Origin: Puniceicoccaceae bacterium
GTDB lineage: Bacteria; Verrucomicrobiota; Verrucomicrobiia; Opitutales; JAFGAQ01
Length of the DNA: 64,000 nucleotides
Direction of reading: 5' to 3'
Assembly (NCBI GenBank): GCA_028285755.1
Contig: JANQOQ010000014.1
Coordinates: 248,001 to 312,000 of the forward strand
The notes under the pieces: generated by a model
Databases searched by the model: none
What the model was told of the DNA's origin: nothing
The model's input: only the letters and a program-made list of their open reading frames with translations
Part shown: in pieces, positions 1,095-11,073 of the stretch
How positions within the stretch are numbered: the first letter of the stretch is position 1
Layout of the letters: each line of letters opens with the position of its first letter
Translations under genes and position numbers: made by a program

Positions 1095-1156
1095 TCTTGT
1101 GTTTTTAGAACGTATGACCTTTAAGAATAAAGGGGAAACTATTCAGGTTGGTATCT

Positions 1157-1172
1157 GTGCAACTGGTTGCAC
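1157..1172. repeat. Inverted-repeat motif GTGCAAC-TG-GTTGCAC, copy 1
   Basis: Two perfect 7-bp arms separated by TG. The identical 16 bases recur in the same orientation at 1524-1539 and 10515-10530. It lies between the left-edge gene and the recombinase gene. The motif is read directly; its role as a recombinase or regulator site is inferred. Confidence 0.75.
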
Positions 1173-1290
1173 TGTTTTTCTTATATGAAATGACCCCTAA
1201 TTTATCAAGCTATATCGCCCTTTGTGGTGCAAATTTTTGTGTTAAAAACTGAGATCAAATAGCGGGCAATTAATCATTAAGAATTAGCCT

Positions 1291-1319
1291 CTTTTTTTAT
1301 AGTGTCAATTTGTGTCAAC
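1291..1319. repeat. Direct repeat led by a T-run, copy A
   Basis: A T-run is followed by ATAGTGTCAA, a TTTGTGT element and CAAC. The related copy B at 1385-1411 keeps the T-run, ATAGTGT, TTGTGT and AAC with small indels. The two copies start 94 bp apart. They look like an old tandem duplication or paired protein-binding sites. Confidence 0.55.
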
Positions 1320-1384
1320 TAGCATATAAAAATTGGTGGTTTTATGGAGTGAAAACAGTTGCCTAAATTCCTTAAAAACAGCCC

Positions 1385-1411
1385 CTTTTTTATAGTGTAA
1401 GATTGTGTAAC
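1385..1411. repeat. Direct repeat led by a T-run, copy B
   Basis: Imperfect copy of the 1291-1319 repeat, two bases shorter. It keeps the T-run, ATAGTGT and the TTGTGT-AAC end in the same orientation. Confidence 0.5.
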
Positions 1412-1522
1412 ATTTGATAATAAAATAAGAAATTATATGTGACAGATTTTTTGGTTATATTGATGCTTTTTAGTAGAGGTTATTTGCCCTTTATAACTTT
1501 CATTGTTCCCTGCCGCAAATTT

Positions 1523-1540
1523 TGTGCAACTGGTTGCACA
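1523..1540. repeat. Inverted-repeat motif, copy 2 (18 bp)
   Basis: TGTGCAAC-TG-GTTGCACA, 8-bp arms with a 2-bp centre, about 125 bp upstream of the serine recombinase start. It extends the 1157-1172 copy by one base on each side and matches the copy inside the integrase gene (10514-10531). Confidence 0.75.
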
Positions 1541-1663
1541 GTTTTCGAAGTTGGTGACCAAGGAATCGATCGAATCATTGGTAAATAAATGTCGTGATAA
1601 TGCGGGAATAACTAGACAGCATCTGTGCCAAATAATAGCTTAGAGGGTTTTTCTTAGACATAT

Positions 1664-2284
1664 ATGAAAAAAACGATAGCCCTCACCCGCATTTCCACGG
1701 GTAAACAAGACTTAGAGGCTCAAAAGCTCTCTATACTGGAATTCGCTCAAAGAGAAGATATCAAGATTGCTGACTTCTTTGAGAGACAAGTATCATCAAG
1801 AAAAACCTTAACCGAGAGAGGAATTGATGATCTATTAGCGTTGTTAGATACAGGAGATACATTGATCGTAGCTGAGTTGTCTCGCTTAGGCCGATCTTTG
1901 AACCAAGTGCTAACGATTGTGAATGAACTTATTGGTAGAGAGATTTACTTTATTTCAATCAAGGAGAACATTCGTATCAGTGGTAAGATCAATCTACAGA
2001 CTAAGGTAATGATTTCTATGTTTGGTCTCTTTGCTGAATTGGAGAGAGACTTCATATCAGAGAGGACTAGAGAAGGTCTCCTTTCCGCAAAAAATAGAGG
2101 GAAGAGGTTAGGCCGTCCCAAGGGTAGCAGAGGTCAATCAAAGCTCGATAGCAGGGAATCTGAGATCAAAGACCTACTCGCTAAGGGTGTATCGGTAAGT
2201 AGCCTGTCCAAAATCCTTGGCGTTGGCCGCAGCACCCTACATCATTTTATTAGGAGTAGAAAGCTGACAGAAATTTTGAACTAG
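1664..2284 (+). CDS. Small serine recombinase (resolvase/invertase family)
   Basis: A 206-aa site-specific recombinase that cuts and rejoins DNA through a serine nucleophile. The N-terminal catalytic domain carries the signature R9-I-S11-T followed by a Gln a few residues on, with Ser11 the likely nucleophile and Arg9 its partner. The usual preceding Tyr is Thr here. The conserved SRLGRSL segment lies near residues 73-79. The C-terminal part (about residues 145-200) contains the basic GRPKGS hinge and a Hin-type helix-turn-helix. Length is typical of the family. It could act as a DNA invertase, as a cointegrate resolvase or as a regulator. The repeats in the 1095-1663 gap are plausible substrates. 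The gene sits just outside the HEPN operon, with which it is convergent. Confidence 0.9.
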   Translation: MKKTIALTRISTGKQDLEAQKLSILEFAQREDIKIADFFERQVSSRKTLTERGIDDLLALLDTGDTLIVAELSRLGRSLNQVLTIVNELIGREIYFISIKENIRISGKINLQTKVMISMFGLFAELERDFISERTREGLLSAKNRGKRLGRPKGSRGQSKLDSRESEIKDLLAKGVSVSSLSKILGVGRSTLHHFIRSRKLTEILN

Positions 2285-2294
2285 GATTTATTTT

Positions 2295-3002
2295 TTAAGA
2301 ATCCATTTTCTCGACCAATGGGTTATTTAAATCAAAGATATCAATATCTAGTTTTCTCCTATTGATAGTCTCTTTAATGGCCTCAGCTGTATTATGGCAA
2401 AAACCAGATAAATTTAAAAATGGTCGGATGTGATTCTTATATTCTTCTTTCTTGCCTGAACGATCATTCGACAGTCTCCAAGGTTGCAGCTCATGAACCA
2501 GACCAATAAACCCTGCTAGCAGTTCTGCATAGGCATCCATATGTTTCGCCTCGCCAAAGCTAACTAAATCTTGTTTTGAAACATGCATATTACCTGTGAT
2601 TCTATTATGATCAAAGTTCTTAAGTATCGCTACATCGCAGACAATGTTTGCTTGTTTATATTTTTTCCTCTGCCTCCTTATGTTGTGATGTGTTTCTACT
2701 CTTATCTGGTGTCTAATTTGTATGGTTGAAGGATTTGCATCATGTTTAAAGCATATGACATACGTATAATTCTTTGCGTCACCTCTAGTGCTATATTTTA
2801 GCCTAAATCTTCCTCCATTAGATGGAGGGTTAATTATATCTATGTTCCAACCTCTAGCCTCATACCATTTGATCGTTTGAGCGAAAGTAGCTGCTTCAAA
2901 TGTTTGGCTAACTCTTTTACCGAAATCATCTATTTTGGACTTCTTATGGCTAAAGAATTGATGAAGTTTATCAGTAGCTATTTTTTGATCAAACCAAGCC
3001 AT
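2295..3002 (-). CDS. Putative PD-(D/E)XK-like nuclease, third gene of HEPN operon
   Basis: A 235-aa protein if translation begins at the ATG at 3002; an in-frame upstream start at 3026 would add eight residues. I see an arrangement like a restriction-endonuclease fold: a helix with Glu (about residue 36), Asp123 in a hydrophobic strand (NIVCDVAIL), then 28 residues later a GEAKH motif (E151-x-K153) followed by a Tyr-containing helix. The spacing and order fit the PD-(D/E)XK superfamily, but that is motif reading, not a homology search. A basic stretch (RRQRKKYK) precedes the Asp. It overlaps the end of the 155-aa gene by 14 bp, so the two are probably translationally coupled. No signal peptide. 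It could also be a non-nuclease protein of the same fold. Confidence 0.6.
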   Translation of the reverse strand: MAWFDQKIATDKLHQFFSHKKSKIDDFGKRVSQTFEAATFAQTIKWYEARGWNIDIINPPSNGGRFRLKYSTRGDAKNYTYVICFKHDANPSTIQIRHQIRVETHHNIRRQRKKYKQANIVCDVAILKNFDHNRITGNMHVSKQDLVSFGEAKHMDAYAELLAGFIGLVHELQPWRLSNDRSGKKEEYKNHIRPFLNLSGFCHNTAEAIKETINRRKLDIDIFDLNNPLVEKMDS

Positions 3003-3456
3003 CACGAGACCCCCTAAACCATTCAACTATTTCGTGAAAATATTGGCTCTTAAGAAACAATTCCTTAAGTTCTTCACTTAGAATAGAGTTCACTAATTCT
3101 TCTGAAAACTCTAACCCCATATTATAATACTCAGATTTTTCAGATAATGACAAAGATCCGATATAAATTTCGTTTACTTCTAAATTTTTAAAAACATCTA
3201 CGGTATCCTTAATCATTCTATCGCTTGCTAGGAAACTCTTGTTCAGAGAGTAGAGGAAAAGAATAATAGTAAGTTCATTAATCGCTTCATTTAGCTTTTT
3301 AAGCTTCTCACTCTTAACATCTTTTCCATACTCTTCATCGCTTAAAATTTTGTATTTTATATTATCGAATTCCAAGGATGAGCTAGCGTAACTTCTTATG
3401 CTCGAAATATAGGGTTTATATCTATAAGGTAACAAATTTCGTAGCTCTGTATACAT
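2989..3456 (-). CDS. Hypothetical 155-aa protein, middle gene of HEPN operon
   Basis: Not recognised. The protein is predicted to be mostly helical, with a charged centre rich in Lys and Glu, no signal peptide and no clear membrane segment. A hydrophobic helix (ELTIILFLYSL) lies near residues 61-71. The gene starts four bases after the stop of the HEPN gene and overlaps the nuclease-like gene by 14 bp. The three are therefore almost certainly one transcription unit and possibly one complex. Adaptor, antitoxin or sensor are all possible; the sequence does not say which. Confidence 0.7.
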   Translation of the reverse strand: MYTELRNLLPYRYKPYISSIRSYASSSLEFDNIKYKILSDEEYGKDVKSEKLKKLNEAINELTIILFLYSLNKSFLASDRMIKDTVDVFKNLEVNEIYIGSLSLSEKSEYYNMGLEFSEELVNSILSEELKELFLKSQYFHEIVEWFRGSRDGLV

Positions 3457-3459
3457 GAT

Positions 3460-4452
3460 CTACCCAAAAATTAAATTTTTGAAATACTCTCTTCGCGTGT
3501 CTGTATCATCAGACGTCCAATTCTGGCCTTCGTCATCCAAGAACTTTGTCAATAGATCGCGCGAATAATCGTCCAATAATCCTGCAATCTCCCTAAGTTC
3601 TACCTTATCACGGCTTCTTAAATGAGATCCGTGAAGTATTTTCGAACGCAAATTATATGCCCTTTTAAGATCGTCATAAACCACCCTTTTAGTCTTTAAC
3701 TCGGATTCCAAAATGAACGCAGCTCTTTCCGACACTTGATGGGCTAACTCAGCATGATCCAATGAGAATATAGCTTCGAATGCTACTATGAGATATGATA
3801 CTCTTAAATCTAAATATTCGGTATTTCTGGCAGAGCCCAAAAACATCAAATAACGATTGAAGATTTCTTTCTGATCAGAAACAGCAAAAGTAATGTTTGA
3901 TTTAAATTCATTTAGTTCCTCTGGGCTTTGATTTAATCTTTCTTGAACAGCCTGATATATTCCTAGCCGCTTTTCGATTTCTACAATCTCACCTATTTCT
4001 GAAATGGAAAAATTAGTATCCTGAGACTCTCCATATTTGTTTCTACAATTTATATAGAGTAAATTTGAATGAGTTTTTTGTAAGCTGATCAAACCCGCCT
4101 GATTATTATACTGAAATATGTAACCCATTTCTGTGTAACAAGAATTGTCTTTCACGATCCAGGCTGAGAATAAGAAGTTACAAACAGCTTGAATCAATTC
4201 GATTAAGTAAGGCTTGTGATGGGTGAGGATAGATGGATGTGCTCTAAGCCGCTCACTGTATGCAATTGCAGGAGCTGATAGTATATTTTCAAATTCTAAA
4301 CTACCTACAGCCTCTTTAAATCCTGGATTATTTATAAATTGGCATTTGTTAACATCATTCGTTAGCCAAATATTTGAGAGAATCTCGATGTCATTATCTA
4401 GTTGTTCAGGAATATTTAGACCATTGATAGCAATTATAAACGAGGAAATCAT
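3460..4452 (-). CDS. Apea-type HEPN-domain protein, first gene of the operon
   Basis: A 330-aa protein whose C-terminal part looks like the Apea/HEPN family. It has a long helix with the LRVSYLIVAFEAIFS pattern (about residues 216-230), then a second helix with AYNLRSKILHGSHL. The latter contains the HEPN R-x4-H motif as R269 and H274. In HEPN proteins these residues form a metal-independent RNase centre used in toxin-antitoxin, abortive-infection and CRISPR-associated systems. Many Apea proteins are uncharacterised. The N-terminal 200 residues are of unknown fold and may sense something. The gene opens the leftward operon with the 155-aa gene (four-base gap) and the nuclease-like gene. The start is the ATG at 4452, the only Met that keeps the N-terminal part. 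A small palindrome lies upstream (4468-4481). Confidence 0.75.
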   Translation of the reverse strand: MISSFIIAINGLNIPEQLDNDIEILSNIWLTNDVNKCQFINNPGFKEAVGSLEFENILSAPAIAYSERLRAHPSILTHHKPYLIELIQAVCNFLFSAWIVKDNSCYTEMGYIFQYNNQAGLISLQKTHSNLLYINCRNKYGESQDTNFSISEIGEIVEIEKRLGIYQAVQERLNQSPEELNEFKSNITFAVSDQKEIFNRYLMFLGSARNTEYLDLRVSYLIVAFEAIFSLDHAELAHQVSERAAFILESELKTKRVVYDDLKRAYNLRSKILHGSHLRSRDKVELREIAGLLDDYSRDLLTKFLDDEGQNWTSDDTDTRREYFKNLIFG

Positions 4453-4515: not shown

Positions 4516-6120
4516 TTATTTATCTAGGACAATATAAGGCAGCCTAACCTCGCTTACTGGTATACCCATTTCTTCTGCGATAAATGCCTTTAGCTGTTCT
4601 TCAACCACGTATCTTTCGGTGGGATGGATAAATCGTTCCCGATGAATCTCCCATAAACGAGAAATCTCCAATTCTTGTTCACTAAGCACTCGATCGGTTA
4701 CCGCTATTTGCCAAACAGGGACATTGTCCGAGCCTGAGTTTCCTTTTCTGTCAGGGCAATAAGTCAAATTACCATAGAGAAGCCCAGAGCCCATTGTTTC
4801 TGGCATGACTTCTAGTTTAACCCAAACCACATCTACCTTATATTCGAGGAAAGCCTCCTTAGCCGTTTCACGCATCACATAAGTTCTATCAGCTTTGGTC
4901 TCTGCACTCGTAATCATGTGAATGCTTCTTCTGTCTCTACCAGCTACCCCCGCATCTGCATCTTTCAAGATGATGTATGAAAATTGCTTGGATGGATCAT
5001 CCTTGTGAATCAGCGTTTTAGTTCGCTTCTCTAGTTCGAGCTTTCGCTCTTCTGCAATTCTTTCTCGTTCTACTCTTGCTAACCGATCTTTTTCAGCGAG
5101 TTCAGCTGCTCTCCTTTTACGCTCTTCCTCCTCAAGCTTTTTGTGATACTCTTCAATACGAGTGATCCTTGCTTCATATTCATTCTGAAAAGATTGGGTT
5201 ATCTGTAACTGTTCCTCATTGAAGTAAGAGGCTATATCTCCATATTGCTGTTTAAGAAAATCAAGTCTGCTGCTGATAACTCTTAGATTTCGGTTAAGAT
5301 TGCTATTTATGTCTTGTTCAAGTGGTTCGTTCTTAAGCAGCAGGGTCGTTTCTTGCAATAATTCAAAGTAGGGTAAGAATGCCTCCTCAATTTCCTTTCG
5401 TCTAAAGATATCATCAAAACTGGCTATGTATTCTTGGTAGGATGATATGAACTGATCAATATTTTCTCTTGCAGATACTTCCAGATAATCGAGGGGGTTT
5501 GCACCTGCATTCGAAAAGTAGGTTGGGACATCTATGATGTTATTTTCATAGATTCGGGTAAGTTCTCTTTTCTCAGAATCCGTATATTGGGGGTTCTCCA
5601 ATATCCCAATGCCCTTTGAAGCTAATCTACCTATTTTGTCTAGGTGAGACCTTGCATACCTGTGATTCATGCTACTTTCATTGGGGTATAAATGTAACAA
5701 GTTTTTCTGGGTGGATACTACTGATGAAGTTTGCTCTGATTTAGTTGAAGTCTGAACGGGAGTTGGCGAATTTTGCCTTTCTTCGTAATAGACTGTTCTT
5801 TGTTCCTCAGTGAGTTCTTCGTATTCCTTTAGCCATTCAGCAAGTGACTTTCTTTTATACGAGTAATCAATCGCTTCAAAATCAGGCTGAGTCTTTTTTA
5901 GGTTTGCCGTAAACGAATTTATCTTCCATCTGGATCGGGACTTTTCAGTTACCCAACCTTTTTCACTGGCTTCAATGTAGTGTTCCGCAGCCTTACAAAT
6001 TTCTTCGATGTAGTAAGTCTCGTTCTTGGTATACTTTGCATTTGCAAGACTGCCCACACTTAGAAAAAATAATGCCAGAGATAGCAGGATTTTGAATTGA
6101 GAATATTGCAGATTTTTCAT
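4516..6120 (-). CDS. Exported coiled-coil protein of unknown function
   Basis: A 534-aa protein with a clear signal peptide (KILLSLALFFLSVGSLANA, cleavage near residue 28). It is therefore exported to periplasm or surface. Residues about 310-370 form a strongly charged coiled coil rich in Glu, Lys and Arg (KKLEEEERKRRAAELAEKDR region). The C-terminal roughly 160 residues look globular and contain ILKDADAGVAGRDRR; this resembles a small domain seen fused to coiled coils in other uncharacterised bacterial proteins, but I cannot name it. It is followed in the same direction by the HEPN operon. The membrane protein at 6861 lies just upstream with an 18-bp gap, suggesting a two-gene envelope module. 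Confidence 0.75.
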   Translation of the reverse strand: MKNLQYSQFKILLSLALFFLSVGSLANAKYTKNETYYIEEICKAAEHYIEASEKGWVTEKSRSRWKINSFTANLKKTQPDFEAIDYSYKRKSLAEWLKEYEELTEEQRTVYYEERQNSPTPVQTSTKSEQTSSVVSTQKNLLHLYPNESSMNHRYARSHLDKIGRLASKGIGILENPQYTDSEKRELTRIYENNIIDVPTYFSNAGANPLDYLEVSARENIDQFISSYQEYIASFDDIFRRKEIEEAFLPYFELLQETTLLLKNEPLEQDINSNLNRNLRVISSRLDFLKQQYGDIASYFNEEQLQITQSFQNEYEARITRIEEYHKKLEEEERKRRAAELAEKDRLARVERERIAEERKLELEKRTKTLIHKDDPSKQFSYIILKDADAGVAGRDRRSIHMITSAETKADRTYVMRETAKEAFLEYKVDVVWVKLEVMPETMGSGLLYGNLTYCPDRKGNSGSDNVPVWQIAVTDRVLSEQELEISRLWEIHRERFIHPTERYVVEEQLKAFIAEEMGIPVSEVRLPYIVLDK

Positions 6121-8827: not shown

Positions 8828-10882
8828 TTAGGTCTCAAACTTGAACCAACCGACAGGCTTCAGGTTCTTGTAGAGCATAGGTTCGAAGTTTATGGAAGGA
8901 TAATTGATTTGATCGATGGAGGCCTTATTTCTTTTCAAGTCATAGGCAGATTGTGTATATCGCTTAATCATTGATTGGCTGAGATTTGCTTTTTCGTCAA
9001 ATACCCAGCCACATAAAGCGTAAATTTCGCGATCACTTAAACCCACCTCATCTGCTCTTGAAGCGAAATTATGCCTCAGGCTATAAAAGTCTTTGAGGTA
9101 TTCGCTGCTTTTTAGGTCAAGCTCCTTCAATACAACCTCTAAGAAATACCGAGTGAAAAATCTGGTTTTATTCTGCGCTTTAGATCGCTTCATGTCATGA
9201 ATGACATAATCGTCTTCTTTACGGTCCTTTATATATTCCTCGAAACCTAGTTCCTTTAGCATTGGATGGATAGGCACTTTCCTAAAGCCCAGTCTTCCTG
9301 TCTTAATTTTTTGCTCATCATATTCTGATACAACGTGGAAATATTTAATTGTCTCTTCTGTGCTGTTATCTACACCGACATTATTATCGATGATTTCATC
9401 TTTGATTTGGCTAATTCTCATCTGCCAAATCTCTTTCGGGCGCATACCAGTAAACAATGTAATTAGAGGTCCCCAGTAGTCTTTATTCCAACTAATGACT
9501 TTGCCTTCCTCATTTAGGTTTCCTCTCTTGCCGCTAGAACCAACGAATAGGGGAAAACTGAATATCTTTTTAAGCTCCAGATCAGTATATGCGTGGCGTT
9601 CTTTTTCTTGGCTTATGTTACCCTTACGATTTCGGTCATTAAATTTTACTGCTAAAACTGATGAAATGCCATGCCTGATATAACCCTCATCCTCAGCATA
9701 CTGAAAAACCTCGCGAGTGTTTCTCAGTAATTTATTGGCTGAATCATTATTTGGCCTTTCTAGGTTGTTCCTTTTGCTCAGCTTAATTCGTCTTAAATAG
9801 CTTAAATCGCCTAAATCATCGTTTGGTTTTCTCTTGGGCAAACTACTAATATTGTCTCTTAGGTCATCAAAATCTTCCTTGGAGAGTATTGATAACGCTT
9901 TGGATTTGAACTGTTCTTTAGCCAAGTCCCTCATGTAAACCCATCTGTCCCAATAGGACTGACCAGGATTATCTCTTTTAGTCTTATGCTCTTTAAACTT
10001 ATCAAATAACTGAGTAACCGTTAGATTAGACTCAGCGAGTGGAAATTGATTTGTTGAATAGGGTGCAATTTGAGGGACACCATCTTTTAAGTCTTTCACC
10101 TCATCTAGTGAGTGGCTTAAGAATTTTGATTTGTCCTCTTTATACAAACAGTCCAACTGCCAAGTTAGCACATCAATCATAATACCTTTGATGAGACGTG
10201 TCGCCTTTAAATAAGGTATGCTATCTGACTCTAAGTTGATTTTGTGTTTTAGAAGAATCTCGTTGAATGCATCTTGATCCAATTTTTTGACGGCTAATTC
10301 GTTGTGTGGCTGGAATACATCAACTCTATAATTCAACATGTGCAGTTCTTGCCTTAGATCACAGAGCTGATTCCAATAAATGTCTTCGTAGCCTTCTTCT
10401 TCCTCGTCTACTCGCTGCTTGTAGTGGAAGATTTCTTCCAGACGAATTTCTGCTTGTTTGAAGTATGTTTCATACCAGTCGAGTATCCATTGCTTCAAAT
10501 CATGGTCTGGAATTGTGCAACTGGTTGCACACTTTTTGATTTCTTCCTTAACGATATCAGCACGGTTCTTAGTAATCACATGGCCCATGCGACGTCTTCT
10601 TTTAGATAAACGCTCTGTATCTGCTGAGTTTATAGTATGTTCGACATCAGCCTGAATTTGAACGCTCTTCTTTTTGTAGTGCTCCATCTCTGCTCTAAAA
10701 GCAGCTAAATTCTTTTCGTGCTGTTCTTCAATTGCAATAGCAGAGCTAGCGTTGATGAATTTGGTCCTTTGCTTCGCATACATCCATAACTCCTCAGGAA
10801 AAGGAAATCTAGTATACCACTGTTTCTTTTTAGGATGATAGTTGAGATACTTGATTTTTCTCACTTTATCCTCTTTTGGCAT
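8828..10882 (-). CDS. Large tyrosine-type integrase of the island
   Basis: A 684-aa site-specific recombinase that joins the element to the chromosome. The C-terminal catalytic domain shows R481 in TGMRPKEI, a likely Lys527, R603 in YSLRHNFASR, W626 in LCGW at the usual His/Trp site and the nucleophile Y642 in MIKRYTQ. The first 80 residues look like the SAM-like arm-binding part of phage integrases (YHPKKKQWYTRFPFP), and an unusually long helical region separates it from the catalytic part. This makes it much longer than the usual 300-400 aa. It points away from tRNA-Arg, with its start codon 114 bp from the tRNA 3' end, the normal position for an integrase at its attachment site. Codons near residue 120 embed a third copy of the 18-bp palindrome. 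Confidence 0.92.
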   Translation of the reverse strand: MPKEDKVRKIKYLNYHPKKKQWYTRFPFPEELWMYAKQRTKFINASSAIAIEEQHEKNLAAFRAEMEHYKKKSVQIQADVEHTINSADTERLSKRRRRMGHVITKNRADIVKEEIKKCATSCTIPDHDLKQWILDWYETYFKQAEIRLEEIFHYKQRVDEEEEGYEDIYWNQLCDLRQELHMLNYRVDVFQPHNELAVKKLDQDAFNEILLKHKINLESDSIPYLKATRLIKGIMIDVLTWQLDCLYKEDKSKFLSHSLDEVKDLKDGVPQIAPYSTNQFPLAESNLTVTQLFDKFKEHKTKRDNPGQSYWDRWVYMRDLAKEQFKSKALSILSKEDFDDLRDNISSLPKRKPNDDLGDLSYLRRIKLSKRNNLERPNNDSANKLLRNTREVFQYAEDEGYIRHGISSVLAVKFNDRNRKGNISQEKERHAYTDLELKKIFSFPLFVGSSGKRGNLNEEGKVISWNKDYWGPLITLFTGMRPKEIWQMRISQIKDEIIDNNVGVDNSTEETIKYFHVVSEYDEQKIKTGRLGFRKVPIHPMLKELGFEEYIKDRKEDDYVIHDMKRSKAQNKTRFFTRYFLEVVLKELDLKSSEYLKDFYSLRHNFASRADEVGLSDREIYALCGWVFDEKANLSQSMIKRYTQSAYDLKRNKASIDQINYPSINFEPMLYKNLKPVGWFKFET
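10514..10531. repeat. Inverted-repeat motif, copy 3 (inside integrase gene)
   Basis: TGTGCAAC-TG-GTTGCACA, identical to 1523-1540 and in the same orientation. On the coding strand it encodes part of KKCATSCTIP of the integrase. That one 18-mer occurs at both ends of the island argues against coincidence. Confidence 0.8.
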
Positions 10883-10960
10883 AGGTTAAAGAATGTAACC
10901 AAATTTGTAACCAACACCAAGTTGATATTTTCAGAAAGTGCTGCATAACAGCAACTTACT

Positions 10961-10990
10961 GAATCGCAAAAACTTATAAAATTGCGATTC
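10961..10990. repeat. Inverted repeat between tRNA-Arg and integrase
   Basis: Perfect 9-bp arms (GAATCGCAA and TTGCGATTC) around a 12-bp A+T-rich spacer, six bases downstream of the tRNA 3' end. It could be a stem in the tRNA transcript, or core-type integrase-binding arms at the attachment site. No T-run follows on the minus strand, so I do not call it a terminator. Confidence 0.5.
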
Positions 10991-10996
10991 AAAAAA

Positions 10997-11073
10997 TGGC
11001 ACACCCTATAGGAGTCGAACCTATAACCTCCTGATCCGTAGTCAGGTGCTCTATCCAATTGAGCTAAGGGTGC
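10997..11073 (-). tRNA. tRNA-Arg(ACG)
   Basis: Folds as a cloverleaf with an encoded CCA end (10999-10997). The acceptor arms are GCACCCT and AGGGTGT, closed by a G-T pair at 1:72. The D arm contains AGCTC, the anticodon stem-loop is CTGACTACGGATCAG with anticodon ACG, and the T arm contains GGTTCGACTCC. The 3' half faces the integrase and is the expected attachment site of the island. I found no second copy of the 3' end in positions 1-10,900, so the other element end is probably left of the window. Confidence 0.95.

What the first reader, a model, noticed from the sequence alone, without database searches (positions are those of the whole stretch)
2295..4452. Compact HEPN / unknown / nuclease-like operon on an integrated island
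Three leftward genes with a four-base gap and a 14-bp overlap encode an Apea-type HEPN protein (R269-x4-H274), an unrecognised 155-aa protein and a protein with an E...D...E-x-K arrangement like PD-(D/E)XK nucleases. HEPN RNases and nuclease-fold proteins recur in phage-defence and toxin-antitoxin systems, and this set lies on a tRNA-linked element next to a recombinase. I know of no named system with exactly this trio, so it is a candidate for an undescribed defence or addiction module.
Basis: partly seen in the sequence, partly recalled or inferred. Interest (0 to 1): 0.78.

Follow-up and report, generated by a model that had tools for sequence, protein, structure and literature searches.

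The report
HEPN RNase gene with two orphans
Three back-to-back genes on an integrated DNA element begin with a convincing RNA-cutting (HEPN) protein of an unnamed family that elsewhere sits alone in phage satellites, prophages and defence regions, so it is probably an anti-phage gene, but its two partner genes have no detectable relatives and the trio was not seen anywhere else.

Summary
The three leftward genes exist as described, with small corrections: the gap is 3 bp, and the last gene most likely starts at ATG 3002 (235 aa).

Gene 1 (330 aa) is a convincing HEPN protein. In 44 diverged relatives W98, R269, H274 and G275 are invariant. An AlphaFold model (pLDDT 90.6) aligns residues ~190-311 best to HepT and Csm6. 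It falls below the Pfam Apea-HEPN cut-off, so "Apea-type" is not established.

Its relatives behave as single-gene mobile cargo. In E. coli (19 of 5,426 genomes) the two loci examined lie exactly between int and psu of a P4 satellite, a published defence hotspot. Others sit by prophage endolysins, integrases or PADLOC-listed genes.

Genes 2 and 3 are orphans in every collection searched and occur beside no other HEPN relative, so the trio is not a recurrent module here. Gene 3's D...E-x-K layout fits PD-(D/E)XK, but the loose motif is expected by chance and its model failed (pLDDT 41).

Most likely the HEPN gene is an abortive-infection-type RNase that works like Tha or HepT. It is not homologous to Tha by sequence. 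Genes 2 and 3 are local, unproven partners.

The parts
3460..4452 (-). Gene 1: HEPN-domain protein, 330 aa; N-terminal alpha/beta domain (about 1-190, invariant W98, nearly invariant D102) and C-terminal HEPN bundle (about 190-311) with R269-x4-H274
2989..3456 (-). Gene 2: 155-aa protein with no family match and no relative found
2295..3002 (-). Gene 3: 235-aa protein (243 aa if the TTG at 3026 is used); possible PD-(D/E)XK layout D123...E151-A-K153 followed by the stretch AYAELLAGFIGLVHE; no relative found
2989..3002 (-). 14-bp overlap of genes 2 and 3
1664..2284 (+). Serine recombinase (Resolvase), convergent with gene 3, 10 bp apart
   Evidence: PF00239 E 1.4e-32
8828..10882 (-). 684-aa tyrosine integrase beside the tRNA
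   Evidence: PF00589 E 1.3e-5, just under the curated cut-off
10997..11073 (-). tRNA-Arg(acg), the integration site; its 3' end is copied 23.3 kb to the left

Best explanation
Gene 1 is an RNase effector of an unnamed, widespread, single-gene HEPN family carried by mobile elements for anti-phage defence. Shown: HEPN motif and fold, strict conservation of R and H, and carriage in phage satellites, prophages, plasmids and islands. Inferred: the protein dimerises, so that R269 and H274 of two chains form a metal-independent RNase site. The N-terminal domain with invariant W98 and nearly invariant D102 keeps it silent until it senses a product of infection. It then cuts cellular and phage RNA and stops growth (abortive infection), as shown for Tha-1. 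Genes 2 and 3 are probably co-transcribed because of their spacing. They are local additions to this element rather than obligatory parts; gene 3 may be a PD-(D/E)XK nuclease and gene 2 a helical adaptor or inhibitor, both unproven.
For: 44 relatives, all under 90% identical to each other, keep W98, R269, H274 and G275 without exception and D102, E226, Y266, S270 and R298 nearly so. The model has pLDDT 90.6, and its best VIA-align rows are MntA-HepT (Z 7.9), HEPN-MNT (7.8) and Csm6 (6.4, 6.2), all over residues 188-311. The paper on Tha-1 names the same two structural kin, HEPN-MNT and Csm6 (PMC11087260). E. coli relatives: 19 of 5,426 complete genomes; the two loci examined lie between int and psu of a P4 satellite at tRNA-Sec. 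That interval is a published reservoir of anti-phage systems, including uncharacterised HEPN ones (PMC9122126). Neighbours of other relatives include phage integrase (7 proteins), GH25 endolysin (4), holin (2), Psu (2), prophage tail (2) and PADLOC-listed DpdF, MkoB, PDC-S06, PDC-S26, HEC-05 and mad3 proteins. No relative of genes 2 or 3 lies near any HEPN relative.
Against: No phage-resistance or toxicity data exist for this family that I could find. Foldseek alone gave no significant match, and a Z under 8 for a helical domain can be a common arrangement; the first four chains are named HEPN or Csm6 proteins, but the position of the catalytic residues in the superposition was not checked. 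No background rate was measured for PADLOC hits near mobile genes. The tight spacing of the three genes argues for some functional link, which this explanation leaves open.
Confidence: 0.6

Rival explanations
1. The three genes form one obligate system: an RNA-cutting HEPN protein, a helical adaptor or inhibitor, and a DNA-cutting PD-(D/E)XK nuclease.
For: 3-bp gap and 14-bp overlap, good ribosome-binding site in front of gene 3, same low G+C (about 35%) and similar third-position G+C (0.31-0.32) in all three. A strict hydrophobic-D / hydrophobic-E-x-K / helix pattern fits gene 3 and only about 1% of other proteins, although that pattern was shaped on gene 3 itself.
Against: Genes 2 and 3 absent beside 44 HEPN relatives; gene 3 absent in the 31 host genomes of those relatives; both absent in plasmids and phages. 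HEPN relatives mostly stand alone.
Confidence: 0.2
2. Toxin-antitoxin or addiction module: gene 1 is the toxin and gene 2 (or 3) its antitoxin, stabilising the element.
For: Small partner gene directly after the candidate toxin gene; the nearest solved HEPN folds (HepT) are toxins of two-gene modules; the genes are on an integrated element.
Against: Relatives of gene 1 occur without any conserved partner, so a dedicated antitoxin is not needed in general; gene 2 has no MNT or other antitoxin family match.
Confidence: 0.12
3. Gene 1 is an intact HEPN defence gene, while genes 2 and 3 are unrelated orphan cargo that happen to lie downstream; gene 3 is not a nuclease.
For: No homologue and no significant family or PDB sequence match for either; single-sequence model of gene 3 at pLDDT 41; the loose motif is common by chance.
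Against: Tight spacing and overlap; the order of elements in the weak model is compatible with a restriction-endonuclease core.
Confidence: 0.08

Closest known systems
Tha-1 / Tha-2 of Staphylococcus phages 80alpha and phiNM2 (PMC11087260)
   Same: Single protein of about 300 aa, C-terminal HEPN with R-x4-H (R265...H270 against R269...H274), carried by mobile phage elements; same solved structural kin (HEPN-MNT, Csm6)
   Different: No detectable sequence relation: the 44-sequence profile scores Tha-1 no better than shuffles and Tha-2 not above them; no antisense inhibitor gene identified; trigger unknown
ApeA / Apea-like HEPN (Pfam PF18739)
   Same: C-terminal HEPN after a partly beta N-terminal region; R-x4-H motif
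   Different: PF18739 not matched by this protein; 1 of 44 relatives at E 0.005; not in PADLOC's models; the ApeA N-terminal domain is described as mostly beta and about 300 aa (PMC3710099), here about 190 aa alpha/beta
MntA-HepT (HEPN-MNT) toxin-antitoxin and Csm6
   Same: HEPN helical bundle, best solved structures for residues 188-311
   Different: No MNT antitoxin gene recognised, no CARF domain recognised; different N-terminal domain
Unnamed HEPN cargo of P4-satellite int-psu hotspots (PMC9122126)
   Same: The E. coli members of this very family sit at that position
   Different: I could not tell from the text whether the HEPN systems counted there are this family; none is named or validated in the passages read

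Membership tests
HEPN superfamily | R-x4-6-H motif near the end of a helix | tested here: met
   R269 and H274 invariant in 44 of 44; R269 at the end of helix 252-273, H274 just after it
HEPN superfamily | Helical-bundle fold of HEPN | tested here: met
   VIA-align: HepT Z 7.9 (rmsd 2.8, 101 aligned), HEPN toxin 7.8, Csm6 6.4/6.2, over residues 188-311; caution: Foldseek alone not significant
HEPN superfamily | RNase activity of the dimer | not testable with these tools
   Needs purified protein
Apea-like HEPN (PF18739) | Match above the Pfam cut-off | tested here: not met
   No match for the protein; own genome has no match; 1 of 44 relatives at E 0.005
Tha | Sequence homology to Tha-1/Tha-2 | tested here: not met
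   Profile scores no better than shuffled controls; 16% identity
Tha | Activation by a phage tail protein; inhibitor Ith encoded antisense | not testable with these tools
   Experiment needed
PD-(D/E)XK nucleases (gene 3) | Profile or sequence match to a family of the clan | tested here: not met
   No Pfam, NCBIfam, PADLOC, PHROG or PDB sequence match
PD-(D/E)XK nucleases (gene 3) | alpha-beta-beta-beta-alpha-beta core carrying D and E-x-K | tested here: inconclusive
   Single-sequence model pLDDT 41, too weak to search; element order compatible
Recurrent three-gene defence module | Genes 1-3 co-occur in unrelated elements | tested here: not met
   0 of 44 HEPN loci carry a detectable relative of gene 2 or 3
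P4 int-psu hotspot cargo (gene 1 family) | Located between int and psu | tested here: met
   E. coli loci L063, L064, also L015 and Citrobacter L048, where the HEPN gene follows int and Psu is a neighbour; not true of the window itself, whose element is of another kind

The most novel reading that the evidence does not exclude
A two-nuclease defence operon in which an RNA-cutting HEPN sensor, a helical adaptor and a DNA-cutting PD-(D/E)XK enzyme act together, with both non-HEPN parts belonging to families not yet described.
Probability: 0.17. Interest if true: 0.6.

Novelty: new member of a known kind. Interest (0 to 1): 0.45.

Why it matters
HEPN RNases are a main class of bacterial suicide defences. 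This family has an undescribed N-terminal domain with its own invariant residues, spans Pseudomonadota, Bacteroidota, Bacillota and Cyanobacteria, and is missed by Pfam and PADLOC although E. coli carries it in a known defence hotspot. The E. coli member can be tested at once. If it protects, the W98/D102 domain would offer a new sensor to study, and the window would show a version that has gained two unknown companions.

Tried and rejected
Gene 3 relatives: weak hits L008 (ABC transporter locus), L009, L058 (polyphosphate kinase), L059 (terminase-like phage locus), L065 (response-regulator locus), L072 (tyrosine integrase N-terminus) and L073 (glyA/hflX region) were read and rejected as chance. 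Peptide-pattern scans of genome contigs and viral contigs for gene 3, one with hand-made degenerate variants, found none. A recurrent 390-400-aa gene upstream of HEPN relatives looked like a partner, but the proteins are unrelated (integrases, a transposase, an amidase, others). Tha homology and Apea-HEPN homology were tested with shuffles and not found. Foldseek of the HEPN model against viral structures gave nothing usable. A search of papers for accessions of relatives found nothing. The N-terminal domain (1-190) had no solved match in the list, but it was not modelled and searched alone, so nothing follows from that.

Full report
WHAT IS THERE. Three - strand ORFs run 4452-3460 (330 aa), 3456-2989 (155 aa) and 3002-2295 (235 aa from ATG; 243 aa from TTG at 3026). 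Genes 1 and 2 are 3 bp apart. Genes 2 and 3 overlap by 14 bp if gene 3 starts at the ATG, which has AGGGGG a few bases upstream. The frames are longer than chance allows. Gene 3 ends 10 bp from the end of a convergent serine recombinase. The consensus scan found fewer promoter-like sites than shuffles do, so it says nothing.

THE ELEMENT. A 684-aa tyrosine integrase lies beside tRNA-Arg. The tRNA 3' end and flank (window 10956-11006) recur as a 51-bp, 92% copy at window position -12367 to -12317 (contig C11:235633-235683) and as a 35-bp, 97% copy at -21300 to -21266. The trio therefore lies in an element of about 23.3 kb, with a possible second segment of about 9 kb in tandem to the left.

GENE 1 IS A HEPN PROTEIN. 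No Pfam, NCBIfam or PADLOC family reaches it; only PHROG 28161, of unknown function, does (E 1.9e-6). tblastn found five distant plasmid relatives (22-30% identity), two annotated as HEPN proteins. An alignment-based scan found 13 loci in viral contigs and 31 in genomes of several phyla. In 44 sequences, none of them 90% identical to another, W98, R269, H274 and G275 are invariant. The 39-sequence AlphaFold model has pLDDT 90.6 and pTM 0.88. VIA-align ranks HepT (Z 7.9), HEPN-MNT toxin (7.8) and Csm6 (6.4, 6.2) first, all on residues 188-311. Foldseek alone was not significant. The label "Apea" does not hold by Pfam's standard: no match for this protein, one weak match among 44, and no profile relation to the PF18739 matches taken from other genomes of the phylum.

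WHERE ITS RELATIVES LIVE. In E. coli, 19 of 5,426 complete genomes carry one. In both loci examined the gene lies between int and psu of a P4 satellite at tRNA-Sec, and the Citrobacter and IMG/VR loci L048 and L015 look the same. This interval is a described reservoir of anti-phage systems, some with HEPN domains (PMC9122126). Other relatives sit beside GH25 endolysins and holins of Gram-positive prophages, integrases, resolvases and transposases, and next to PADLOC-listed genes: DpdF in L045, MkoB in L043, PDC-S06 in L038, PDC-S26 in L033, HEC-05 in L044, mad3 in L036. No background rate for such hits was measured. Mostly the gene stands without a closely spaced partner, and no neighbour family is shared widely.

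GENES 2 AND 3 ARE ORPHANS. Neither has a convincing family match or any PDB sequence match. Gene 3 has no believable relative in 72,556 plasmids, 50,697 phages, 388 genomes of its phylum, 259 genomes of the phylum of L048, or the 31 genomes that hold HEPN relatives. Gene 2 has none in plasmids, phages or 195 genomes, where the only other match was a 48-residue stretch at E 0.004 in a frame with a stop. Pattern scans of the large collections need exact short peptides, so distant relatives there could be missed. The trio was thus not found a second time.

IS GENE 3 A NUCLEASE? D123 and E151-A-K153 with a following helix are compatible with PD-(D/E)XK. The loose motif occurs in 70% of other proteins; a strict one that I shaped on gene 3 occurs in about 1%. 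The single-sequence model failed (pLDDT 41), though its order of elements does not contradict the fold. I leave this open at about even odds.

MECHANISM. By analogy with Tha-1, a 301-aa single-gene HEPN RNase that is activated by phage tail proteins and degrades RNA (PMC11087260), gene 1 is most likely a sensor-effector: the N-terminal domain senses, the C-terminal HEPN dimer cuts RNA. This is inference; a sequence relation to Tha was tested and not found. Genes 2 and 3 may tune or add to this, or be separate cargo.

VERDICT. A real, probably defensive HEPN gene of an unnamed but broadly spread family, in a one-off operon with two unknown genes.

Noticed in passing
G000:C11:246218-247138 (window -1783 to -863), + strand: A 306-aa protein of the same element contains LRNSIAHSDY, another R-x4-H arrangement; it may be a second HEPN-like protein. 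It does not match the gene 1 profile.
   Followed up: partly
window -21300 to -21266 and -12367 to -12317: Two copies of the tRNA-Arg 3' end left of the window suggest two integrated segments in tandem; the left one carries FecI/FecR-like regulators, a TonB-type receptor and a sulfatase (by eye from the translations).
   Followed up: partly
window 1155-1560: The intergenic stretch before the serine recombinase holds two copies of GTGCAACTGGTTGCAC and a repeated 'tttttttatagtgt...tgtgt' stretch; candidate recombination site or operator of the recombinase.
   Followed up: no
L038:7135-8463: The gene after the HEPN relative in this Halobacteriovoraceae locus also matches the HEPN family profile (E 1.3e-10): two family members in tandem beside a PADLOC PDC-S06 gene.
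   Followed up: partly
L045:5666-6393: A HEPN relative split into two overlapping reading frames (97 and 145 aa), probably a broken copy, near a DpdF gene.
   Followed up: no
window 4516-6120: 534-aa protein with a C-terminal DUF4875 domain (PF16175, E 4.1e-29) just upstream of the trio on the same strand.
   Followed up: no
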